Below, piece by piece: positions 25,547 through 40,400 of a stretch of DNA of 64,000 nt. Every line of letters begins with the position of its first letter. The stretch's first letter is position 1. Under the pieces are notes generated by a model that had not been told where the DNA came from, did no database searches, and saw nothing but the letters and a program-made list of their open reading frames with translations. Made by a program: the position numbers and the translations under genes. Source of the DNA: a virus; IMG/VR virus record IMGVR_UViG_3300032722_000006, positions 1-64,000 of that record, one strand, 5' to 3'.

Positions 25547-26557
25547 ATGCATGAATTTGGCGTCGTCATCGGACGGTTTCAACCTTTTCACAATGCGCAC
25601 CTAGAATTGGTGCGTTTTGCGCTTAAGCAAGCGCAGAAGTTGGTCATCGTCCTTGGAAGCGCCAACGCGGCGCGGGACACGATGAACCCATGGTCCAGCA
25701 CTCAGCGCGCCGAAATGGTCCGAGCGTGCCTCTCTTCGGAGGAGAACCTTCGAGTCGAGTTCGTGCATGCCAAAGACTATCAGTCCAACAACATGTGGTT
25801 GGCATCCGTCCAGAGCGCGATCGATGATATTACGGGCGGGTCCTGTGACATCAAGCTGATTGGGCACAAGAAGGATGCAACGAGCTTCTACTTGAAGCTG
25901 TTCCCTCAATGGGGCGACTACGTCGAGTCGGGAGTCTCTTCGGAACTCGATGCGACGAGTGTCCGAGACAACCTGTTTCGCCAAGACAAGGTCGATGTCA
26001 AGAAGATGGTGCCGCTGCCCGTCTTCAACATCATCGAGGCCTGGATGGCGACCCCCGAGTTCCAGCGCCTCCACGGCGAGTATGAGGACATTCAGAACGA
26101 ACATGCGGCCTGGCTCGGAGCCCCCTACAAGCCCACCTTCGTCACCACCGATGCCATCGTCATCTGCAGCGGTCACGTCCTGGTCGGCCGCCACGGTGGC
26201 AAGTACGGCAAGGGGCTGATTGCCTGGCCAGGCGGCTACATCAACGCCGACGAGTACATCATCGACTCCTGCATCCGAGAACTTCGGGAAGAGACCAAGC
26301 TCAAGGTGACGACCGAGGACCTCAAGAAGTCCATCATCGACAAGGAAGTCTTTGACAGTCCTCGTCGCGACCAGCGCGGCCGCGTCATCACCCACGCGTT
26401 CTGTTTCAAGCTTCCGGACGGGGCTCTTCCCAAGGTCGTCGGTTCCGACGACATGGCGAAGGCCTGGTGGATGACGATCCACGAGTTTCACCGCCGAGAG
26501 GAAGAGTTCTTCGCAGACCACTACAAGATGGGCTGTCGCTTCGTAGACCGTTTCTGA
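25547..26557 (+). CDS. nadM: Bifunctional NMN adenylyltransferase-Nudix hydrolase (NadM type)
   Basis: 336 residues. Residues 8-20 have GRFQPFHNAHLEL, the HxGH-type nucleotidyltransferase motif, and ELDATSVRDNLF is the second motif, as in archaeal-type NadM. A Nudix domain follows (~200-336), with a Nudix box (GGYINADEYIIDSC followed by IRELREETKLKV, ~229-254). This fusion is known in cyanobacterial/Francisella-type enzymes: the first part joins NMN and ATP to make NAD+, the second hydrolyses nucleotide diphosphates such as ADP-ribose. GGAG lies 7 bp before the ATG. From about nt 25990 the third-codon positions turn strongly to G/C, unlike the surroundings, suggesting separate acquisition. 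Nampt (32283) is its functional partner. Confidence 0.92.
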   Translation: MHEFGVVIGRFQPFHNAHLELVRFALKQAQKLVIVLGSANAARDTMNPWSSTQRAEMVRACLSSEENLRVEFVHAKDYQSNNMWLASVQSAIDDITGGSCDIKLIGHKKDATSFYLKLFPQWGDYVESGVSSELDATSVRDNLFRQDKVDVKKMVPLPVFNIIEAWMATPEFQRLHGEYEDIQNEHAAWLGAPYKPTFVTTDAIVICSGHVLVGRHGGKYGKGLIAWPGGYINADEYIIDSCIRELREETKLKVTTEDLKKSIIDKEVFDSPRRDQRGRVITHAFCFKLPDGALPKVVGSDDMAKAWWMTIHEFHRREEEFFADHYKMGCRFVDRF

Positions 26558-26617: not shown

Positions 26618-27295
26618 ATGAAAGTCAAGCTGAAACACCTCCGAACGTTGGACGTCGCTCAGGCCAACGTCTTGGAAAACGTAAAGTGCTACGACAGCCT
26701 GGACGAGGCGATACGCAGTTGGGGAGTGGACGGTGGTGAAGTCGGGTCTGAGACCTACAACGACCGGGTCGGTGCAGCATTCGAGGTGTTCACTGAGTTC
26801 TTTTACGCTCGTTACGGCACCGCGTCGAACCCGTTGCTCGGCGTCACCGATGTCTCTCACACTAGTCAAGATCCGATGCAGTGCGGTTTCGATTTCGATT
26901 ACACCGATTTGAGCGGTGACAGGGGCATCATCCAGTCGAAGTGGCGTAGTAACCCAATGCGCCTGTTCTCGCTTAGCGAGCTCGGCACCTTCATCGGTAT
27001 GGCTGACGGTGAGGGCATTCCGTCACATCGTCGCATCCTCTTCACTAACCTCGAGCATTCGCCTTCAGATTCCAGCAACGGTGTCTTTCATCGTGGCTTC
27101 AAGCATGCTCGAAACCAGATGCGAGTCATGGGACGGTCACAGCAGGTCGAGTTCATCGACCGCGACCCGAATTTCTGGCCCGATCTGTTGATTTCGGTGC
27201 TCGCTAGTGCCAAGCCTCCTAAGACCACTCGAGCGCCCAAGATGCGCCTCCACCAGCTCGAGGCATTCGAAGGCGTCCTGCAGGTGATGAAGTGA
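26618..27295 (+). CDS. PD-(D/E)XK restriction endonuclease-like protein
   Basis: 225 residues. An acidic helix at ~54-63 (FEVFTEFFYARYG), GFDFDYTD at ~89-96 and GIIQSKWR with a QxK at ~105 match the Mrr/Type III-like nuclease pattern E-(helix)...D...Q/ExK. The C-terminus, MRLHQLEAFEGVL, looks like the Q motif of an SF2 helicase, which belongs with the helicase encoded next. The two genes overlap by GTGA, so the nuclease and the helicase appear to be a split fusion protein, translated in coupled fashion. The gene opens a restriction-modification-like cassette that separates the two NAD salvage genes. Confidence 0.72.
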   Translation: MKVKLKHLRTLDVAQANVLENVKCYDSLDEAIRSWGVDGGEVGSETYNDRVGAAFEVFTEFFYARYGTASNPLLGVTDVSHTSQDPMQCGFDFDYTDLSGDRGIIQSKWRSNPMRLFSLSELGTFIGMADGEGIPSHRRILFTNLEHSPSDSSNGVFHRGFKHARNQMRVMGRSQQVEFIDRDPNFWPDLLISVLASAKPPKTTRAPKMRLHQLEAFEGVLQVMK

Positions 27296-28749
27296 ATCGC
27301 GGTCGCTTCATCGTCTCGACGGGAGGCGGAAAGACTCTGATCGAGTACTACGCCCTACGACATGGTTTCTTCACGCTCGGTCACTCGCTGCAGGTCATCG
27401 TCGCTCCCACTATCGATCTGCTTCGGCAACATGATGAGACTTTCGCATGCTATGGGATGTTTCACGTGGACGATGTGGCTCGCATTCACTTCAGGACGGG
27501 TGATGAGGCACGTCTCGATGCCAACGCTCCGTACTTCCAGACCACAAATCCGGGTGAGCTGTTCGAAGCCCTGAAGCACTGTGAAAAGCACAAGGTGCTC
27601 ATCTTCGTCACCTACGCCTCTGTCAAGAAGCTGTTTGCCATCCTATCGAATTCAGACCGAAAAGTCGATGCTTGTATGTGGGACGAGTTTCACCACCTGT
27701 GTCAGCAGATCGAGGAACAGAAACGTTGGTTGCAGACGCTGTGGTCTGACCGTAACCTATTCTTCTCTGCTTCAGAAAAGCGCGGTCGCATCGTCAGCAC
27801 CATCGACGAAGAATTGTTCGGCCCAAAGTTAGCTGACATCGGTTACGCTCGCCTTCGAGCTGACGGCATCGTCGTCCCAAACATCGTCATCAAGCCCATC
27901 CGGATGAACGAGGAAGGTAAGCGAGCTAAGGCATTGTCACGGGAGATGAAGAAGACAGCTGAACGCAATGGTTTCGACCTGAAGGATGCTACTCTAGAAG
28001 CTGCAGGCTGCATCGTCGCCGTCAGGGACATGTTGGAAACTGTTGGTACTGCGAACGTGGTCACTTTCAGCCAACAAGTCGCAATTGCGAAGGCTATCAT
28101 CTCTTCTCAGGCGGTCAAAGATGAACTTCCTGACGTATTGCTGCAGACAGTGCATGCAGGTGTCCCTGGGCGAGAACGTAAAGAAGTCTACGCGAGGGTC
28201 AGAACGTCAGTGGCTTCGCTCCTCGGACAGCACTCCATCGTCAAGGAGGGTATCGACATCACCTGCTTCAATGCTCTGGTGATGGCACGTAACATGGAAG
28301 TCATCGGTGTTCAGCAGGCGATCGGTCGCATCGTCCGTGCAGACCCGCGGGACACGGAGGCGTTGAAAGCGGGTCGCATCTCGCTCGATTCTCCAGAAGG
28401 CTGGCACAAGTACACGGCGACAGTCTACGTCCTGGTCCGTGACGAGAGTGCTGATGACTTCAGACTGTGGCTTCGAGGCTTCATCGAAAAGATGACGTTA
28501 TCGGGCTTCAGTCCCGCCGACTACCAGTTCGCTGACATCACCGAAGAACGACACGGCAAGAAATCCATGAACACCGAGTGGGTGCTCCCATTACTGGCGA
28601 AGGCTGAACTCGAGTCCGAAAATCTCAAGGGCATTGTCAAGAACCTCATCGTGGAGATCGATGACGTCGAGGCTCACGAGCAGGACATGAACCGGTGCAG
28701 CAAAATGAGCAATCTCGAACTATTGGAGGCCGCCTGTGCCGTCGTCTGA
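27292..28749 (+). CDS. Superfamily 2 helicase of restriction type
   Basis: 485 residues, GTG start. Walker A is VSTGGGKT (8-15), Walker B WDEFHH (~129-134), motif III FSAS, motif V KEGIDITCFNALVMA and motif VI QAIGRIVRAD (~341-350). There is no motif Q upstream of Walker A within this gene, because it is encoded at the end of the preceding nuclease gene. Such helicases work as translocases in Type I, III and ISP restriction systems, and resemble T4 UvsW in general build. The 14-bp overlap with the next methyltransferase places all three proteins in one translational unit. Confidence 0.85.
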   Translation: MNRGRFIVSTGGGKTLIEYYALRHGFFTLGHSLQVIVAPTIDLLRQHDETFACYGMFHVDDVARIHFRTGDEARLDANAPYFQTTNPGELFEALKHCEKHKVLIFVTYASVKKLFAILSNSDRKVDACMWDEFHHLCQQIEEQKRWLQTLWSDRNLFFSASEKRGRIVSTIDEELFGPKLADIGYARLRADGIVVPNIVIKPIRMNEEGKRAKALSREMKKTAERNGFDLKDATLEAAGCIVAVRDMLETVGTANVVTFSQQVAIAKAIISSQAVKDELPDVLLQTVHAGVPGRERKEVYARVRTSVASLLGQHSIVKEGIDITCFNALVMARNMEVIGVQQAIGRIVRADPRDTEALKAGRISLDSPEGWHKYTATVYVLVRDESADDFRLWLRGFIEKMTLSGFSPADYQFADITEERHGKKSMNTEWVLPLLAKAELESENLKGIVKNLIVEIDDVEAHEQDMNRCSKMSNLELLEAACAVV

Positions 28750-29944
28750 GCCCACTCGAGCCACCCAGAAAAGTCTTCAAGCTCGACTTGATGAAGCTTA
28801 CATCGACGACCTATGTAAGCCTGCGTGTACCCTGTACGCCACACTCGGCAAACAGATGGTCGAGCGACTCGACCTCACTGGTCATGTTCTCGTGCTGAGT
28901 GACTTGGGTCTGCTCGCAGCCGTTCTCATTCATCGTCGAGAGAAGCGCGTCGCAACCGGTACTGTCACCTTCGTCTGTCACACTGAAAAGGTCGCCACGT
29001 TCACTCGCAGCCTTGGCGTAGAACCGATCTTTGTGCCCTACGATGGCCTCGATTTGTTCTTCACGGGACACGAGAATATAATATTTAGAGGTACCTTGAA
29101 TCGCAAATTCGACGTTCTGATCGGGAACCCACCCTTCAACCCACCCAAGTCAGGCGACGGGCGTAAGGAAGGTAGCAAGATCTGGCAGAAGTTCATCGAA
29201 CGTGCCTTCGAGCTCGCCGCTGACGACGGTCACCTGCTGTTCGTCACCCCACACAACTGGCGCCAGGGCAACTTCAAGCCTCGAAGCCTTCACCGTCAGG
29301 CGCAGTCACTGATGTTCGATAGCAAAATCAAGTGGTGGATGGACACCCGAGAGCCTGTCGATCACTTTCCGATGCTCGGTGACACCTCAGTGGACGCCTG
29401 GCACGTGATCAAGGGACAGAAGAACGAGCTTCATGAGGTGCTGCAGAAGTTGTGTCTGCTCCCGAAGTCAAGTGACCCTGAGACACTGGCGAAGGTGGCT
29501 AAGTTTTACGAGGTGTGCATGCGGGAAGAACCAATCGAGAAGCAAGCAAGACTTCGAGGGTGGGCTTCGATTCCGTCTGACACTGAACCTGACGGACACC
29601 CGTATCCGTTGGCGAATACTAGCGCTCAGGTCAAGAAAGGTCGTTTCAACTGGTCGGCTGAGAAGCCACCTCATTTCGAAAGCAAAAAAGTACTCGTCAG
29701 TGATAGCGGTGCGTTCGTCATCGGATACGATGATGGAAAGTGTTCAGTTGGAGAACACACTGCAGCCTACATCGTCTCCTCGAAACAAGAAGGAGATCGA
29801 GTGGTAGAGTTCCTGCAATCACCGCTCGTGAAGTTCGTTGCTGAACAGTTCATGAAGCCCGGTGCATTGGGATTTCCCATGGAGCTCTTTGAGCGCGTGC
29901 CGAAAGCGATCCTGACTAAGCCGTGGGAAGAGGTGTTCAGGTGA
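28736..29944 (+). CDS. DNA N6-adenine methyltransferase-like protein with NPPF motif
   Basis: 402 residues, GTG start with GGAGG 6 bp before it. The catalytic motif IV reads VLIGNPPFNPP (~128-138), the signature of N6-adenine DNA methyltransferases. The N-terminal segment VLVLSDLGLLAAVLIHR could be a degenerate SAM motif I and is not a clear FxGxG. Downstream the sequence continues into a ~270-residue region with no known target-recognition motif that I can name. The overlap order nuclease, helicase, methyltransferase resembles a disassembled Type ISP or Type III restriction system. Modification or restriction activity is inference. Confidence 0.75.
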   Translation: MPSSEPTRATQKSLQARLDEAYIDDLCKPACTLYATLGKQMVERLDLTGHVLVLSDLGLLAAVLIHRREKRVATGTVTFVCHTEKVATFTRSLGVEPIFVPYDGLDLFFTGHENIIFRGTLNRKFDVLIGNPPFNPPKSGDGRKEGSKIWQKFIERAFELAADDGHLLFVTPHNWRQGNFKPRSLHRQAQSLMFDSKIKWWMDTREPVDHFPMLGDTSVDAWHVIKGQKNELHEVLQKLCLLPKSSDPETLAKVAKFYEVCMREEPIEKQARLRGWASIPSDTEPDGHPYPLANTSAQVKKGRFNWSAEKPPHFESKKVLVSDSGAFVIGYDDGKCSVGEHTAAYIVSSKQEGDRVVEFLQSPLVKFVAEQFMKPGALGFPMELFERVPKAILTKPWEEVFR

Positions 29945-31080
29945 ACAAACCTGAAAATCAGCACAAGGCGTTACCCAGGTTTTTGATCAAGAGATTCAAA
30001 GACGCCGAGCATCAAGTGCTGCTCGGCGATAGAACCAATCTTGTTGGTGAATGGAAGCTCCAAGATGCTGGTCAGACAAAGAGCGGGCCGTTCACAGAGC
30101 GTAACTACTACACAATACCTGACATTGAAGATCCTTTTGCAGTTGAAATCTTGCTCAGCAAGACGGAAGCAGCTGCAGCTGCTTCAATCAAACACATCGT
30201 TAATGGGAAGCATTACGCAGCGATCAACGATAACAGACCAGATTCTCACAAAGAACATCTCAGCATATTCTGCGCACTATTGTTCACGCGCGGTGATACA
30301 GCACGTATGCTGCGCGTGGAAGGGATGAAACAGCAATCGCGGATTCTCATAGAGAAAAGCAAAGAGTATGTGACGTCACCTCTTGTGCAGCAGTTGCTCA
30401 TTCACGATCCATGTGAAGTCATCTCACGAACAGGTGATTTCATGCAAGCTGTCAACTTGCCCGTTGCAGGCCCCATGGGTTTTCGTAAGCTTTTTAGCTT
30501 AGGAAATTTTAGCTTAGGAAAACAAGACATCGGAGGGGAATATGAAGCTGATGAAGTCGTGGACGCAGTCAAAACGTATGATCCCAATCAGTTCAACATT
30601 GATGTCACTCATCAAGAAAAACTGCACTTGGAAGTGATGCGTGAGGCTATCAAGTCATATGTGTCAATCTTCATGGCTCGTGAATGGGAAGTCATCGAAT
30701 TCCCTGAAGACACGCTCATCACCGGGGATGAGCCCATATGTCTCTTGGGATCTGATCACAGACCGGGCATAATGCCCCTTGGTTTGATCTGTAATCAGAT
30801 TGTCATTCCTGTTGATCCGAAACACGCATTTGTGGCATCAATGCCTGATTACAAGAGACTAATCACTTCAGCATCGATGAAGAATGACTGGCAGCACTGT
30901 GCAGGCATCATCAATTCGAATCTTGCATATGGGTGTTTACACTACGTAGTGTGTCGACCTCAGAATTGTAAAGGTCGTCATCCGCTCAAAGGTTGGGTCG
31001 TTCCTGACATGTCGCCTCATGTACATACAGAGGACGATTACATCATTTCTCATGTAAGACCAGTTCGATTGGTGCCATGA
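29941..31080 (+). CDS. DUF4238-like protein
   Basis: 379 residues from the GTG at 29941 (GTGA overlap with the methyltransferase). The start PENQHKALPRFLIKRF and the later WEVIEFPEDTLITGDEPICLL, with RNYYTIPDIEDPFAVE in between, match the DUF4238 pattern ('P-RF-L--F', 'fvtsDePv'), a family of unknown function often found in defence islands. An earlier GTG at 29923 would add six residues inside the preceding gene. No catalytic motif can be named. Part of the RM-like cassette by overlap on both sides (ATGA with the following gene). Confidence 0.65.
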   Translation: MNKPENQHKALPRFLIKRFKDAEHQVLLGDRTNLVGEWKLQDAGQTKSGPFTERNYYTIPDIEDPFAVEILLSKTEAAAAASIKHIVNGKHYAAINDNRPDSHKEHLSIFCALLFTRGDTARMLRVEGMKQQSRILIEKSKEYVTSPLVQQLLIHDPCEVISRTGDFMQAVNLPVAGPMGFRKLFSLGNFSLGKQDIGGEYEADEVVDAVKTYDPNQFNIDVTHQEKLHLEVMREAIKSYVSIFMAREWEVIEFPEDTLITGDEPICLLGSDHRPGIMPLGLICNQIVIPVDPKHAFVASMPDYKRLITSASMKNDWQHCAGIINSNLAYGCLHYVVCRPQNCKGRHPLKGWVVPDMSPHVHTEDDYIISHVRPVRLVP

Positions 31081-31481
31081 GAACTCCTGAACGCGTCGAT
31101 AAGTTCGGTGAGATCTTCACTCCACGCTCGTTGACCCTCGAAATGTTGCGTCAAGTGCCCAAGGAAACCATCTCCGATCCCTCGAAAACTTTTCTGGACC
31201 CATCCTGTGGTGACGGTGCATTCCTGTCGTGTATCGTCTACCTCAAGGTGAAGACGGGCTCTACACCGGTGCAGGCATTGTCCACTACGTTCGGCGTTGA
31301 CATCATGCAAGACAACGTGGATGACTGCAGAGAACGGATGTTGAAGCACGCTGAGAAGGCGTCAGGAGAGACACGCACAGACGAGTGGGTAACTTGGGTG
31401 AACCGAAACGTAGTGTGTCACGATACGCTGACGTATGACTTCGAGTTTACGGGTGACGAAGGAAGGATTCCTAATTCTTGA
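31077..31481 (+). CDS. N-terminal/SAM-binding part of an adenine DNA methyltransferase
   Basis: 134 residues. GEIFTPRSLTLEML and FLDPSCGDGAFL (motif I, ~38-49), then ALSTTFGVDIMQDNVDDC match the N-terminal half of type I/IIG-type N6-adenine methyltransferases. The catalytic NPPY/F motif is not in this gene; it lies in the gene at 28736. It ends in a short tail overlapping by 64 bp the 3' end of the convergent endonuclease gene, so an originally longer protein may have been cut by that insertion. Small stand-alone proteins of this type are also known in phages, so truncation is not proven. Confidence 0.75.
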   Translation: MRTPERVDKFGEIFTPRSLTLEMLRQVPKETISDPSKTFLDPSCGDGAFLSCIVYLKVKTGSTPVQALSTTFGVDIMQDNVDDCRERMLKHAEKASGETRTDEWVTWVNRNVVCHDTLTYDFEFTGDEGRIPNS

Positions 31482-32242
31482 AGCTTGTCTCTCGTCCACA
31501 GCTCGAAGTTGGACATGATAGTCTTGAACCACTCGCACTTGGCTCGGGACCCGTCGGTCAGCCAACCCTTGATGTCGATCCACAGGTCCATGTCCACGAC
31601 ATAAGCATCAGGACGGTAAGAACGCCCGTTGGGCATCTTGAATGTCTTGGGTTGCCACTGGAAATCTATCTTTCTGTCATTGAACCACTTCACAGTCGCC
31701 AACTCGTAGGAGCTAGAACAGAAGCACGACTCACCAGTCTTCCAGTGGTCAACGTGTCCGTGCTTGAAGGTCTTGTTGATCATCTTGACCTGATACGCCG
31801 GCAAGTGAGCAAAGTGCGAAACGCCGTAGCGTTCCTCACAGGTCTTGTGAAATCTGACGCGACCAAATTTCGGGTGACGAGTCTTCTTGTAGAGGACGTT
31901 AGTCGCCAGAGCTTCAAATTCTCCGAATTGTTCATCAAGGAACTTGTAGCGAAAGTTCACTCCTCGGAATGTGTCAAGAATGGTGACAGCATCACCATGA
32001 ACCTCACGAAGCATGACGACGAATTCACATTTCAGCATCTTTCGACCATCAGATTTCAGCTTCCTGCTGTGCGTCGGATGTCGAGAACTGCGCAGAACAT
32101 TGCGAGGAAACGCCTCAAATTCACCGTATTCGGGATCGACAAAAGTGGCAAGTTCATTCACCCCAACGAACGTTCCCAACTTCAACTGAATTCGCCCATC
32201 ATGAATGAGCGACAACTTGCGAATCACATCTTCTTGGTTCAT
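31418..32242 (-). CDS. Free-standing PD-(D/E)XK endonuclease, paralog of the gene at 10609
   Basis: 274 residues on the minus strand. Two copies of a fold with EFEAFPRNVL and EFEALATNVL form an internal repeat, followed by an ERYG segment (CEERYGVSHFAHLP). The C-terminal nuclease shows SSYELATVKWF, YRPDAYVVD and the catalytic-region WIDIKGWL (DxK). The HWKT, MPNGRSY and AKCEWF parts match its paralog at 10609-11382. It lies antisense in the gap between the methyltransferase remnant and Nampt, overlapping the former by 64 bp. Its arrangement is that of a mobile, homing-type gene. Confidence 0.75.
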   Translation of the reverse strand: MNQEDVIRKLSLIHDGRIQLKLGTFVGVNELATFVDPEYGEFEAFPRNVLRSSRHPTHSRKLKSDGRKMLKCEFVVMLREVHGDAVTILDTFRGVNFRYKFLDEQFGEFEALATNVLYKKTRHPKFGRVRFHKTCEERYGVSHFAHLPAYQVKMINKTFKHGHVDHWKTGESCFCSSSYELATVKWFNDRKIDFQWQPKTFKMPNGRSYRPDAYVVDMDLWIDIKGWLTDGSRAKCEWFKTIMSNFELWTRDKLQELGILPSSPVNSKSYVSVS

Positions 32243-32282
32243 GCAAGTCTAAATGTACATCACTGAAAGAAAGCGTAAACTC

Positions 32283-33689
32283 ATGAGCGACGATTTTAAC
32301 ATCATACTTGATACTGACTCGTACAAGGCCAGTCACTGGTTACAGTACCCTCCGAACACCACAAGTGTCTTTTCCTACATCGAGAGCAGAGGAGGACGCA
32401 GCACCGAAACGGTCATGTTCGGGCTTCAGTATTACCTCAAGAAGTACTTCACAAAGCCGGTGACCATGGACATGGTAATGGAAGCGAAGGAATTCTTCGC
32501 GGCCCACGGTGAGCCTTTCAATGAGGAAGGATGGGTTCATGTTGTGAAGAGCCACGGTGGACACTTACCCGTTCGCATCCGTGCCGTGCCCGAAGGCACT
32601 GTCGTTCCGACACACAACGTTCTCGTCACCGTCGAGAACACCTGTGATAGGTGCTTCTGGATCACCAGTTGGATCGAGACGATGCTATTACGCATCTGGT
32701 ACCCGATCACAGTCGCTACTGAGAGCCGCGAGATCAAGAAATTGATCCTCTCACACCTCAAGCAGACGAGCGATGATCCTCAGGCAGAGATCAACTTCAA
32801 GCTGCACGACTTTGGCTCACGTGGCGTCTCAAGTCAGGAGAGCGCAGGGATCGGTGGAGCGGCGCACCTTGTGAACTTCATGGGAAGCGACACGGTCGTC
32901 GGCGTGTTGACTGCGAATCGTTACTATGACTCTTCAATGGCAGGATTCTCGATCCCGGCAGCAGAACACTCCACGATCACATGTTGGGGACATGAACACG
33001 AGGCTGATGCGTACCGTAACATGCTTCGAAATTTTGCGAGGCCGGGCAAGCTCGTTGCGGTCGTCAGCGACAGCTACGATATCTTCAATGCATGCGAACA
33101 CCTGTGGGGAGGTGAGTTGAAGCAGGAGGTCATCAACTCCGGCGCGACAGTCGTCATTCGTCCCGATAGCGGCGATCCGGCGACTGTCGTGGAGCACTGT
33201 CTCACGCTGCTTGACAAGAAGTTTGGGTCAACGATCAATTCTAAAGGGTTCAAGGTCCTCAACAACGTACGTGTGATCCAAGGCGATGGAATCAATCGAG
33301 AGTCAATCGATGAAATCCTCACACTAGCTCGCCAGTACTTTTTCAGCGCATCAAACATCGCATTCGGAATGGGTGGTGCGCTCCTGCAACAACACAACCG
33401 CGACACGCAGAAGTTTGCGATGAAATGCAGCTACATGGAGGTCGACGTCAAAGGCGTTGACATCTTCAAGGATCCCATCACAGATCCTGGAAAGAAGAGC
33501 AAGCGAGGTCGCCTTGACCTCATCAGGACGCTTGATCGTGGGATCGAGACCGTGAAGCTGGAGAAGTGGGGACCGTTCAAGCACTTCCCTGATGCTCACC
33601 GTGATTCGATCATGGAGACGGTCTTCGAGAACGGTGAGATCACGAAGACGTACACGCTTGACGAGGTACGGCACAATGCACGGACATGA
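32283..33689 (+). CDS. nadV: Nicotinamide phosphoribosyltransferase
   Basis: 468 residues from the ATG at 32283 (an ATG at 32253 is in frame and possible). It has ILDTDSYKASHW, YIESRGGR, DFGSRGVSSQESAGIGGAAH, the PRPP/nicotinamide site FSIPAAEHSTITCWG, and VIRPDSGDP, all hallmarks of Nampt/NadV. The enzyme makes NMN from nicotinamide and PRPP, the first step of NAD+ salvage. NadM at 25547 performs the second step, so the phage carries a complete two-gene NAD+ salvage route. Phage Nampt plus NMNAT pairs have been shown to restore NAD+ and overcome NAD+-depleting defences (the NARP2-type pathway). It is divergent from the endonuclease gene; a 40-bp gap may hold both promoters. Confidence 0.95.
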   Translation: MSDDFNIILDTDSYKASHWLQYPPNTTSVFSYIESRGGRSTETVMFGLQYYLKKYFTKPVTMDMVMEAKEFFAAHGEPFNEEGWVHVVKSHGGHLPVRIRAVPEGTVVPTHNVLVTVENTCDRCFWITSWIETMLLRIWYPITVATESREIKKLILSHLKQTSDDPQAEINFKLHDFGSRGVSSQESAGIGGAAHLVNFMGSDTVVGVLTANRYYDSSMAGFSIPAAEHSTITCWGHEHEADAYRNMLRNFARPGKLVAVVSDSYDIFNACEHLWGGELKQEVINSGATVVIRPDSGDPATVVEHCLTLLDKKFGSTINSKGFKVLNNVRVIQGDGINRESIDEILTLARQYFFSASNIAFGMGGALLQQHNRDTQKFAMKCSYMEVDVKGVDIFKDPITDPGKKSKRGRLDLIRTLDRGIETVKLEKWGPFKHFPDAHRDSIMETVFENGEITKTYTLDEVRHNART

Positions 33690-36030: not shown

Positions 36031-36106
36031 GCTCCCGTAGCCTAGAGGTCAGGCGGCGGAACTTCAAATCCGACACACGTGGGTCCAAATCCCACCGGGG
36101 GCGCCA
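36031..36106 (+). tRNA. tRNA-like gene with UCA anticodon and 8-nt anticodon loop
   Basis: The cloverleaf is readable: acceptor GCTCCCG (36031-36037) pairs with CGGGGGC (36096-36102, one G-U), D-arm GCCT/AGGC, T-arm GTGGG-TCCAAAT-CCCAC (36079-36095), discriminator G and encoded CCA (36104-36106). The anticodon arm has four pairs (CGGA/TCCG at 36057-36060 and 36069-36072) and an 8-nt loop ACTTCAAA instead of 7. With U33 conserved, the anticodon is UCA, which would read UGA. The T-loop has C at position 55 instead of T, another deviation. If one A is extra, the arm becomes like tRNA-Trp/Sec arms with CTTCAAA. The charge specificity is unclear. Confidence 0.6.
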
Positions 36107-37986: not shown

Positions 37987-39240
37987 ATGGCAGCAAAGAA
38001 GAAGATTTTGATGCTCTGTGATATGCCTCTCTCGACGAGCGGCGTTGGAGTGCAGTCTCGATTCCTCATCAACGGTCTGTTACAGACGGGAAAGTACTCA
38101 TTCAGGGTGTTCGGTGGTGCTGTCAAGCACGACAGTTACGAACCGATCATGGTGAATGACAACCCTGATTTCATCGTAAAGCCCACGAACGGCTTCGGCG
38201 ACAAGAACCTGCTTCGTATGACGTTGGCAATGGAGCGCCCTGATGTGCTTCTTCTGTTCACCGATCCACGGTTTTTCATCTGGGTATGGGAGATGGAGGA
38301 TGAGGTTCACCAGATCTGTCCGATCGCGTACAATCACTTGTGGGACAACCCACCGTGGCCAGAATTCAATCGCGTTCTATATGAGTCGACTGATCTGATC
38401 AACTGCATCAACTATCCGACATACGAAATGGTCGGCGAACGCTTCCCAGAGAAGACGAACTACATCCCACATGCAGTTCCTGATGATGTGTACTTTCCGC
38501 TTCCTGAGGTTGAACGTGCTCGACTGAAGGCCGGCATCATCGGAAAGGAACGTGCCGATCACTTTGTCGTGTTGTATGTCAGTCGCAATGCCAGGCGAAA
38601 GTGCACGAACGACATCATCATCTCATTCAAACAATTTGTTGATGAGCTTCAGCAGAAGCATGGGCATAGGAAGGCATCTCTCGTGATGCACACTGATCCC
38701 CTTGATCCCGAAGGTGCAAATCTTCATCACGTCATCGACATGCTTCACATGAAGGATCACGTGATCTTCTCGAAGGAACGGATCAAGTTCGACCAGATGA
38801 ATGCACTCTACAACGTTGGCGACACGCTCATCAACCGTTCGTGCAACGAGGGATTCGGTCTACCGACACTGGAAATGATGATGGCAGGGCGACCGATCAT
38901 CTCAATCAAGACCGGTGGTCTGACACGCCAGGTCGAGGACCACGAGACGGGTGAGCAGTACGGCATCGCACTTGAACCTGACGTTCGAACGCTCGTCGGT
39001 AACCAGATGGCTCCATACATCTACGAGGACTTTGTGTCGCATGAAACTGTGACCAATGCATTCATGAAAATGTACGAGATGGGTCCTAAGAAGCGTGCTG
39101 AAATTGGTGCAAGAGCACGGCAACATGCGTTGAAGGACTACAACATCAAGAACATGATCGGTGATTGGGACAGGACGTTGACAGGGCTCACTGACAACTG
39201 GAAACGGGGACAGAATCGCTGGAAGGCAATGGAAATCTGA
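37987..39240 (+). CDS. GT4-like glycosyltransferase
   Basis: 417 residues. ILMLCDMPLSTSGVGVQSRF is the donor/acceptor start of a GT4 enzyme, FVVLYVSRNARRKCTNDII marks the second Rossmann half, and RSCNEGFGLPTLEMMMAGRPIIS is the E-x7-E donor motif, given here in shorter form as EGFGLPTLEMMMAGRP. It overlaps the next GT gene at TGATG by 1 bp. A second glycan pair separate from the main block; may glycosylate DNA, virion or host surface. Confidence 0.88.
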   Translation: MAAKKKILMLCDMPLSTSGVGVQSRFLINGLLQTGKYSFRVFGGAVKHDSYEPIMVNDNPDFIVKPTNGFGDKNLLRMTLAMERPDVLLLFTDPRFFIWVWEMEDEVHQICPIAYNHLWDNPPWPEFNRVLYESTDLINCINYPTYEMVGERFPEKTNYIPHAVPDDVYFPLPEVERARLKAGIIGKERADHFVVLYVSRNARRKCTNDIIISFKQFVDELQQKHGHRKASLVMHTDPLDPEGANLHHVIDMLHMKDHVIFSKERIKFDQMNALYNVGDTLINRSCNEGFGLPTLEMMMAGRPIISIKTGGLTRQVEDHETGEQYGIALEPDVRTLVGNQMAPYIYEDFVSHETVTNAFMKMYEMGPKKRAEIGARARQHALKDYNIKNMIGDWDRTLTGLTDNWKRGQNRWKAMEI

Positions 39241-40400
39241 TGAAGAAGACTGTCTTGTTTAGGTCGCCCGTGTTGACGCAATCGGGCTATGGTACGCACG
39301 CCCGACAGATTGCGCGATGGCTGCTGACACACAAGGACGTTGACGTGAAGTTTGCGACGTTGCCCTGGGGCGACACGCCGTGGATGCTTGACAGGGACAT
39401 GTGTGACGGCCTCGTCGGCAAGATCATGGAAAACAGCGTCAAGCTCGATCACAAGGCCGATGTCACAGTTCAGCTGCAACTTCCCAATGAATGGGACCCA
39501 ACGCTTGCACCCATCAACATCGGCATCACGGCGGGTGTTGAGACAGATCGGTGCAATCCGGAATGGTTGTCAGCATGCAACAAAATGACAACCGTCATCG
39601 TCCCATCGCAACACACGTTGACTAGCTTCGTGAATTCTGGCACCGTGATCACTCCCATGCACGTCATCCCTGAGGCATACAGCGATGCAATCCGTGATGA
39701 GAACCTTCCCACACTGCCTGAGTTCTCTACGCCGTTCAACTTTCTCATCTTCGGTCAATTGACGGGAACAAACCCAGAGAGCGATCGAAAGAACACGTTC
39801 TACGCGATCAAGTGGTTATGTGAAACGTTCAAGGACGACCCGCGAGTTGGCATCGTCATCAAGACGAATGTTGGCAAGAACAGCCTGATCGATCGCAACG
39901 TCACGAAGAATCTGATCACTGGAATTGTCAATGAAGCGCGCCGCGGGTCGACCATGCCCAAGGTTCACCTGCTACACGGTGACATGACAGAGCGTGAGGT
40001 CGCTGCGCTCTACAAGCACCCGCAGATCAAGGCACTCGTTTCATTGACTCGAGGTGAAGGATACGGTTTGCCGATCCTTGAAGCAGCCGCTTCCGGACTT
40101 CCTGTCATCGCCACAGGATGGTCAGGTCACCTCGACTTCCTAAAGCATGGCAAGTTCGTCAGCGTCTATTACCAGCTAGGTGAGGTTCACTCCAGCAGGA
40201 TCGACAACAAGATCTTCGTCAAGGGAGCACGATGGGCAAACGCTAGCAAGGAAGACTTTCAGAAGAGGATCACGAAGTTCGTGCAGAGCAGCTCCACACC
40301 GAAGGAGTGGGCAGTCGACTTACAGAAGACGATCGTCGACAAATACAGTCTCAACAGCATCATGAAGATGTACGATGAGACGCTGAAGGGGGTCATCTGA
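39240..40400 (+). CDS. GT4-like glycosyltransferase
   Basis: 386 residues. VLFRSPVLTQSGYGTHARQIARW at the N-terminus (in motif terms SPVLTQSGYGTHARQ), TRGEGYGLPILEAAASGLPVIATGW with the E-x7-E donor signature split as GEGYGLPILEAAASGLP, and FVKGARW are typical GT4 elements. It overlaps the gene before and after by TGATG, so it is translated with the upstream GT and the 107-aa membrane protein. Confidence 0.88.
   Translation: MKKTVLFRSPVLTQSGYGTHARQIARWLLTHKDVDVKFATLPWGDTPWMLDRDMCDGLVGKIMENSVKLDHKADVTVQLQLPNEWDPTLAPINIGITAGVETDRCNPEWLSACNKMTTVIVPSQHTLTSFVNSGTVITPMHVIPEAYSDAIRDENLPTLPEFSTPFNFLIFGQLTGTNPESDRKNTFYAIKWLCETFKDDPRVGIVIKTNVGKNSLIDRNVTKNLITGIVNEARRGSTMPKVHLLHGDMTEREVAALYKHPQIKALVSLTRGEGYGLPILEAAASGLPVIATGWSGHLDFLKHGKFVSVYYQLGEVHSSRIDNKIFVKGARWANASKEDFQKRITKFVQSSSTPKEWAVDLQKTIVDKYSLNSIMKMYDETLKGVI

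What the first reader, a model, noticed from the sequence alone, without database searches (positions are those of the whole stretch)
26618..31481. Five-gene translationally coupled restriction-modification-like cassette carried by a phage
Nuclease (26618), SF2 helicase (27292), NPPF methyltransferase (28736), DUF4238-like protein (29941) and a motif-I methyltransferase half (31077) overlap by 4-14 bp at each junction (GTGA, 14 bp, GTGA, ATGA). The parts are those of a Type ISP/Type III enzyme, but disassembled into separate chains and joined by a DUF4238 protein, which is not a known RM component. This combination is not one I recognise as a described system; it could be anti-competitor restriction, self-modification, or a new defence type.
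Basis: partly seen in the sequence, partly recalled or inferred. Interest (0 to 1): 0.82.

Follow-up and report, generated by a model that had tools for sequence, protein, structure and literature searches.

The report
Phage restriction cassette with two-part methylase
A bacterial virus carries a set of overlapping genes that looks like a dismantled restriction-modification machine, whose DNA-methylating enzyme is split into a catalytic chain and a separate cofactor-binding chain; the same split machine turns up, unannounced, in many other viruses, while the odd fifth gene (DUF4238) is a passenger found only here.

Summary
The five overlapping genes are real. Four of them (PD-(D/E)XK nuclease, SF2 helicase, NPPF methyltransferase chain, motif-X/I chain) form a module that I found in 28 non-redundant phage clusters in several orders, including four with the window's order, and in isolated T4-like cyanophages (Bellamy, ACG-2014f, S-CAM7). 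The fifth, DUF4238, is in none of 25 related phage records, is relatively AT-rich, and is a known stand-alone anti-T7 gene, so it is best read as an inserted passenger.

The unusual part is the methyltransferase: a gamma-type N6-adenine enzyme split so that one chain carries NPPF plus target recognition and another carries intact S-adenosylmethionine motifs. Natural single-chain fusions exist, in permuted order. One motif-I gene often serves several NPPF genes (five in L134; two whole modules in L147).

Nuclease and helicase are one gene in the closest relatives; here a GTGA overlap cuts between Q motif and Walker A, and a distant relative has ATGA at the same place.

Most likely this is a Type ISP-like restriction-modification system used by the phage against unmodified DNA (host or rival phage). 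Activity is untested, and in this window the NPPF chain keeps a decayed copy of the half that the small chain would supply.

The parts
26618..27295 (+). Nuclease chain, 225 aa, PD-(D/E)XK type; conserved E56, E60, G90-x-D92, Q106-x-K108, F186-W187
   Evidence: phrog_7683 E=0.0034; cyanophage homologue Bellamy gp87 is phrog_7683 E=6e-86; invariant residues over 16 diverse members; 38-45% identical to the N-terminal domain of fused proteins L114/L147. No solved structure matched by sequence.
26783..26941 (+). Predicted nuclease active site: E56 (26783-26785), D92 (26891-26893), Q106-x-K108 (26933-26941)
   Evidence: Invariant in the family alignment; assignment to PD-(D/E)XK motifs is by pattern.
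27251..27256 (+). SF2 Q-motif-like HQ (of RLHQLEAF), encoded at the 3' end of the nuclease ORF although it belongs to the helicase fold
   Evidence: Alignment to L114 and L147 (MREHQ / SREHQ) runs through the junction.
27292..28749 (+). SF2 helicase-like ATPase chain, 485 aa; Walker A TGGGKT (27319-27336), DEFH (27682-27693), QAIGRIVR motif VI
   Evidence: Pfam ResIII 1.9e-07 and Helicase_C 2.3e-06; 46-48% identity to L114/L147 helicase.
27292..27295 (+). GTGA stop/start overlap that separates nuclease and helicase; SD-like AGGTGA just upstream
   Evidence: Sequence; relatives L114/L147 are fused here; L037 (about 25% identical) has ATGA at the same place.
28736..29944 (+). Catalytic/target-recognition chain of an N6-adenine methyltransferase, 402 aa; NPPF at residues 131-134 (29126-29137); N-terminal Rossmann half without GxG
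   Evidence: Pfam Eco57I 6.9e-11; phrog_3689 2.3e-15; AF2 pLDDT 82, pTM 0.81; Foldseek best hit M.TaqI E=9e-12, then CamA.
29941..31080 (+). DUF4238 protein, 379 aa; passenger gene inserted in the operon
   Evidence: Pfam PF14022 6.5e-23; GC 46.1% against a window gene mean of 51.3% (sd 2.5) and GC3 46.8% against 60.1% (sd 6.9); absent from 25 related records.
31077..31481 (+). S-adenosylmethionine-binding chain of the methyltransferase, 134 aa; motif X GEIFTP (31107-31124), motif I DPSCGDGAF (31197-31223); no NPPF
   Evidence: phrog_21201 1.4e-15; matches M.BseCI and CamA N-terminal halves; 55% identical to L016.
31418..32242 (-). Convergent Vsr/resolvase-like nuclease gene, probable free-standing homing endonuclease; overlaps the 3' end of the motif-I gene by 64 bp; not counted as part of the system
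   Evidence: phrog_9019 4.3e-10, phrog_15137 1.8e-4; the motif-I protein is full length compared with its relatives.

Best explanation
It is a phage-borne, multi-chain restriction-modification system that works like a Type ISP enzyme taken apart, with an unrelated DUF4238 defence gene inserted in its operon. The NPPF chain recognises a DNA site and carries the catalytic motif; the last gene supplies, in trans, the S-adenosylmethionine-binding half (motifs X and I), and the pair methylates adenine at that site on phage DNA. At unmodified sites the helicase translocates and the nuclease cuts. In a phage with no detected integrase the target would be unmodified DNA present during infection: the host chromosome or a superinfecting phage. 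Shown here: presence and integrity of the genes, family assignments, conservation of the four-gene module, natural fusion of the two methyltransferase pieces, nuclease-helicase fusion in relatives, absence of DUF4238 elsewhere. Inferred: physical association of the chains, methylation, cutting, and the biological target. My confidence that the two methyltransferase chains form one enzyme is about 0.8; that the whole cassette restricts DNA, about 0.6.
For: Four-gene module in 28 non-redundant phage clusters in at least five gene orders, four contigs with the window's order. NPPF-seeded scan: 74 of 80 loci have a motif-I gene adjacent. In those loci all 53 distinct stand-alone motif-I chains keep motif I and 51 keep motif X, while 150 of 170 distinct unfused NPPF chains lack an intact motif I (18 start at motif IV, 98 have none recognisable, 34 have lost the first glycine). 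Natural NPPF-then-motif-I fusions L006, L026, L028, L030; L026 folds with pLDDT 84.5, pTM 0.79 and hits gamma-type N6 methyltransferases, Type ISP LlaGI at E=1.3e-3. Nuclease and helicase fused in L114/L147. Conserved nuclease residues.
Against: No activity data. The window's NPPF chain still has its own predicted beta1-beta3 half, so the small chain cannot simply fill a gap there; it must displace that half or bind differently, and no natural fusion of this NPPF class was found. 20 of 170 NPPF chains elsewhere keep a GxG motif I, most of them beside a separate motif-I gene. The nuclease family has no solved relative by sequence. A split nuclease-helicase could reduce activity.
Confidence: 0.6

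Rival explanations
1. Modification-only complex: the methyltransferase pair protects phage DNA from host restriction, and helicase and nuclease serve modification, recombination or DNA processing rather than restriction (in the way P1 DarB, from memory, pairs methyltransferase and helicase).
For: Many loci have only NPPF plus motif I without a recognised nuclease or helicase (41 clusters). ACG-2014f Syn7803C7 lost nuclease, NPPF and helicase but kept motif I, with another NPPF gene about 100 kb away.
Against: The nuclease gene is kept with the helicase in 28 clusters and its putative catalytic residues are invariant; in L114/L147 it is fused to the helicase, as in restriction enzymes.
Confidence: 0.2
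2. The motif-I chain is not half of the enzyme: the NPPF chain methylates alone and the small protein is a regulator or decoy that binds S-adenosylmethionine.
For: The window NPPF chain is predicted as a complete Rossmann fold and matches CamA and M.TaqI over its N-terminal part too; gut bacterial systems carry both a degenerate motif I in the long chain and a separate motif-I protein.
Against: Chains that start directly at motif IV (18) and the natural permuted fusions leave no other source for motifs X and I; motif I in cis is typically broken (for example DPACKSGVF) while the separate copy is intact.
Confidence: 0.12
3. DUF4238 is an integral fifth component (for example an effector or specificity adaptor).
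For: It is embedded with 4-bp overlaps at both sides, so it is translated with the others; DUF4238 alone gives resistance to T7 (PMC9122126).
Against: No DUF4238 in any related cassette or in the 25 related records, some of which are fragments; base composition differs from its neighbours.
Confidence: 0.1
4. The cassette is decaying: the nuclease-helicase gene is frameshifted and the operon is broken up by a foreign insert.
For: Relatives have one continuous nuclease-helicase gene; the window lacks two codons and is out of frame at the junction.
Against: All five reading frames are intact; the helicase has its own GTG with an SD-like sequence; a distant relative has the same split by ATGA; catalytic motifs are all present.
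Confidence: 0.08

Closest known systems
Type ISP restriction-modification enzymes (LlaGI, LlaBIII)
   Same: PD-(D/E)XK nuclease, SF2 helicase-like ATPase, gamma-type N6-adenine methyltransferase and target-recognition part, in the same order nuclease-helicase-methyltransferase
   Different: Type ISP is a single chain (PMC4666363); here there are four chains, the methyltransferase is split and in permuted order (IV-TRD-X-I), and no coupler was identified
Type IIG/Eco57I-like helicase-methyltransferase enzymes, including the GIY-YIG helicase plus Eco57I methylase systems of gut bacterial contigs (L007 and loci)
   Same: NPPF chain with a broken motif I next to a separate intact motif-I protein; in L007 also a helicase-nuclease gene
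   Different: Different nuclease (GIY-YIG), motif-I gene first, catalytic chain about 510 aa; found mostly in bacterial contigs, without the nuclease family seen here
Circularly permuted phage adenine methylases (Iyer et al. 2021, PMC7824862)
   Same: They report circularly permuted M.EcoKI-like methylases in jumbo phages, which fits the single-chain Ah1-type fusions found here
   Different: The passages I read do not describe the two-gene form, its link to nuclease and helicase, or one motif-I gene serving several catalytic genes
Virus-encoded restriction-modification of chloroviruses
   Same: A lytic virus carrying its own restriction and methylation genes side by side; there the endonucleases are held responsible for host DNA degradation (PMC7019647)
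   Different: Site-specific endonuclease/methyltransferase pairs in viruses of algae; no helicase, no split methyltransferase
DUF4238 stand-alone defence gene (Rousset et al. 2022)
   Same: Same Pfam domain; single protein that gives strong resistance to T7 (PMC9122126)
   Different: There it stands alone in a P2-like phage hotspot; here it sits inside an RM-like operon; PADLOC's model matches only weakly (E=0.049)

Membership tests
Type ISP restriction-modification | single polypeptide | tested here: not met
   Four separate core genes
Type ISP restriction-modification | Mrr-family nuclease domain | tested here: inconclusive
   PD-(D/E)XK-like with GxD...QxK, no Pfam or PDB match to Mrr
Type ISP restriction-modification | SF2 helicase-like ATPase downstream of the nuclease | tested here: met
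   ResIII and Helicase_C; fused to the nuclease in L114/L147
Type ISP restriction-modification | coupler domain between helicase and methyltransferase | tested here: inconclusive
   The profile of the fused protein (A8) matched only XPB-type helicases in the PDB, not LlaGI or LlaBIII; no dedicated coupler search was possible
Type ISP restriction-modification | gamma-type N6-adenine methyltransferase with target-recognition domain | tested here: met
   Eco57I family, Foldseek M.TaqI/CamA, LlaGI among the fusion's hits; but split and permuted
Type ISP restriction-modification | ATP-dependent cleavage between unmodified sites | not testable with these tools
   Needs biochemistry
Split N6-adenine DNA methyltransferase (two complementing chains) | one chain with motif IV, the other with motifs X and I, each lacking the other | tested here: met
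   Window NPPF chain has no GxG; window motif-I chain has no NPPF
Split N6-adenine DNA methyltransferase (two complementing chains) | the two pieces are one chain in some relatives | tested here: met
   L006, L026, L028, L030
Split N6-adenine DNA methyltransferase (two complementing chains) | the chains associate and only together methylate | not testable with these tools
   Heteromer prediction and biochemistry not available
DUF4238 defence gene | DUF4238 domain above the Pfam cut-off | tested here: met
   82 bits against a cut-off of 27
DUF4238 defence gene | protects cells from phage | not testable with these tools
   Known for another member only

The most novel reading that the evidence does not exclude
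Phages (and some bacterial mobile elements) use a detachable cofactor subunit: one small motif-X/I protein supplies the S-adenosylmethionine site to several exchangeable catalytic/target-recognition chains, or even to several whole restriction modules, so that a virus changes or multiplies specificities by swapping cargo next to a constant subunit. In chains like the window's, a decayed cis half acts as a placeholder that the small chain must replace, which would make methylation depend on the last gene of the operon.
Probability: 0.4. Interest if true: 0.8.

Novelty: new variant of a known kind. Interest (0 to 1): 0.63.

Why it matters
If right, a common but unannotated class of phage DNA methyltransferases works as two proteins, with motif I supplied in trans. 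Family searches that ask for a complete methyltransferase will miss or misname both halves (the motif-I half is mostly annotated 'hypothetical protein' in isolated cyanophages). It also means that lytic phages carry full restriction machines, which bears on how phages clear host DNA or exclude rivals, and it offers a natural split N6-adenine methyltransferase for engineering.

Tried and rejected
DUF4238 as a core component: rejected on absence from related cassettes, from annotated phages and from plasmids. One-base sequencing error as the cause of the nuclease/helicase split: unlikely, since the window lacks two codons and is out of frame relative to L114/L147, and L037 has its own ATGA split at the same point. 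Motif-I gene truncated by the convergent endonuclease gene: rejected, it is full length. BREX/PglX, MADS or Type I HsdM membership: only weak local matches. Single-protein scan of viral contigs with the NPPF chain found nothing, hence the profile scans. blastn against annotated phages found nothing. PDB sequence searches for nuclease and DUF4238 gave nothing. Second copies of either methyltransferase piece in this phage: none in the 145-kb record. Literature searches found no description of the two-gene enzyme, but the library lacks most subscription papers.
Full report
Observation. The window lies in a 145,283-bp virus record with tail-type genes and no tyrosine integrase match (the record may be incomplete). 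Short overlaps are common in phage operons, so I tested whether the combination is more than chance by asking whether it recurs.

The module recurs in isolated phages. The small motif-I protein has tblastn relatives in 66 annotated phage records. In Synechococcus phage Bellamy the genes run helicase - NPPF methyltransferase - 187-aa protein - motif-I protein. The 187-aa protein is phrog_7683, the family that weakly matches the window nuclease. ACG-2014f Syn7803C90 has motif I - nuclease - NPPF - helicase, and S-CAM7 0910SB42 has nuclease - NPPF - helicase - motif I. In ACG-2014f Syn7803C7 the other three genes are gone but motif I remains, with an NPPF gene about 100 kb away. In S-CAM7 0809CC03 other cargo stands beside the same motif-I gene. 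So the motif-I gene behaves as a constant and the rest as exchangeable cargo.

The module in IMG/VR. Two profile scans gave 80 motif-I-seeded and 80 NPPF-seeded loci. Classifying all ORFs with profiles built here, 74 of 80 NPPF-seeded loci have a motif-I gene adjacent; 52 of 80 motif-I-seeded loci have an NPPF gene adjacent and 3 more are fusions. After removing duplicates there are 124 motif-I clusters, 101 of them with NPPF adjacent or fused and 28 with all four functions (counts taken from the list). Orders: helicase-NPPF-nuclease-motif I (most), helicase-nuclease-NPPF-motif I (L111, L169), and the window's order nuclease-helicase-NPPF-motif I (L037, L051, L114 fused, L147). Caveats: loci were picked by similarity to this family, some contigs are short, and my ORF calls are mechanical.

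The two methyltransferase pieces are one enzyme. In L006 (Aeromonas phage Ah1), L026, L028 and L030 a single protein has motif IV and the target-recognition part first and motifs X and I last, the permuted order that the window's gene order also follows. The fusion L026 is predicted with pLDDT 84.5 and pTM 0.79 and resembles M.TaqI, BrxX, CamA, M.BseCI and, weakly, Type ISP LlaGI. Because Foldseek aligns in chain order and I had no coordinates, this shows the family, not the packing of the two pieces. Motif statistics point the same way: 18 distinct NPPF chains start directly at motif IV, 98 have no recognisable motif I, 34 have lost its first glycine (for example DPACKSGVF) and 20 keep GxG. 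Stand-alone motif-I chains are intact in 192 of 194 cases, and in 53 of 53 when only loci found by the NPPF pattern are counted; the first figure is partly circular because that scan used the motif.

One motif-I gene, several partners. L134 has five NPPF genes in a row before one motif-I gene; L117 has several NPPF genes and one motif-I gene; L027 and L138 have two NPPF genes; L147 has two nuclease-helicase-NPPF modules and one motif-I gene. This is the pattern expected of a shared cofactor subunit. It is inference, not proof, especially in L134 and L138, whose NPPF chains retain a DPAxGGGQF-type motif I.

The window's NPPF chain. AlphaFold2 gives pLDDT 82 and pTM 0.81, with best Foldseek match M.TaqI at E=9e-12. 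Its N-terminus still forms helix, beta1, beta2, beta3 and then beta4 with NPPF, but its would-be motif I reads HVLVLSDLGLLAAVL without GxG. So in this phage the small chain does not simply fill a vacant place. Either it replaces the decayed half or it works differently. This is the main open point.

Nuclease and helicase. The closest relatives of both window proteins are the two ends of single proteins in L114/L115 (709 aa; 38% and 46% identity) and L147 (734 aa; 45% and 48%). The alignment runs straight through the junction (MRLHQLEAFEGVLQVMKV--NRGRFIVSTGGGKT against MREHQVRMHDAGSRIMKLEFNRGKFICATGGGKT): the Q motif is in the window's nuclease ORF and Walker A in its helicase ORF. The helicase GTG has an SD-like AGGTGA upstream, and L037, only about 25% identical, has an ATGA overlap at the same place. 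A real split, or a recoded fusion, is therefore more likely than a base-calling error. Nuclease residues E56, E60, G90-x-D92 and Q106-x-K108 are invariant in 16 diverse members, which fits PD-(D/E)XK, although no solved structure is matched by sequence.

DUF4238. The domain is well supported. It is absent from all related cassettes, from 25 related phage records, from annotated phages and from plasmids at the sensitivities used. Its GC is the second lowest and its GC3 the third lowest of 42 window genes, suggestive of a separate origin. A single DUF4238 protein gives strong resistance to T7 (PMC9122126). I read it as an inserted defence gene that borrowed the operon's expression.

How it most likely works. 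NPPF chain plus motif-I chain methylate adenine at a recognition site; nuclease and helicase cut DNA that lacks the mark, as in Type ISP (PMC4666363). For a lytic phage the useful targets are host DNA, as proposed for chloroviruses (PMC7019647), or a rival phage. Nothing here tests activity.

Relation to known systems. It works like Type ISP but fails its defining single-chain feature and has a split, permuted methyltransferase; I do not file it as Type ISP. Circularly permuted adenine methylases have been noted in jumbo phages (PMC7824862). I found no description of the two-gene form or of its link with nuclease and helicase, within a library that lacks most subscription papers. A related arrangement, an intact motif-I gene followed by a chain with a broken motif I, is widespread in gut bacterial contigs. 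I therefore rate it a new variant of a known kind.

Noticed in passing
25547-26557 and 32253-33689: A nucleotidyltransferase-Nudix fusion and a nicotinamide phosphoribosyltransferase flank the cassette; together they look like an NAD+ salvage pair, which from memory is a phage counter to NAD-depleting defences, so the region may be a conflict island.
   Followed up: partly
31418-32242 (-): Vsr/resolvase-like probable homing endonuclease gene, convergent with and overlapping the end of the motif-I gene by 64 bp.
   Followed up: partly
L147:850-9258: Two nuclease-helicase-NPPF modules in tandem sharing one motif-I gene.
   Followed up: partly
L134:3311-10346: Five tandem NPPF methyltransferase genes with nearly identical N-termini followed by a single motif-I gene; looks like an array of specificities.
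   Followed up: partly
L114:7349-8263: The motif-I protein carries a C-terminal extension of about 170 aa with a GGTDL...GFKT stretch that could be another PD-(D/E)XK nuclease domain.
   Followed up: no
L009:3301-5444 (Vibrio phage PVA23): GIY-YIG nuclease fused to an NPPF chain, next to a stand-alone motif-I gene: a nuclease-methyltransferase version without helicase.
   Followed up: no
L182-L251 (gut bacterial contigs): Very common pair: about 220-aa intact motif-I protein followed by an about 510-aa chain with DPACKSGVF in place of motif I; in L007 a GIY-YIG helicase follows.
   Followed up: partly
36031-36106: ARAGORN reports a single tRNA-like gene with an undetermined two-base anticodon.
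   Followed up: no
37987-40400: Two adjacent glycosyltransferase genes (phrog_2170); glycosyltransferase-like genes also stand next to the cassette in L114.
   Followed up: no
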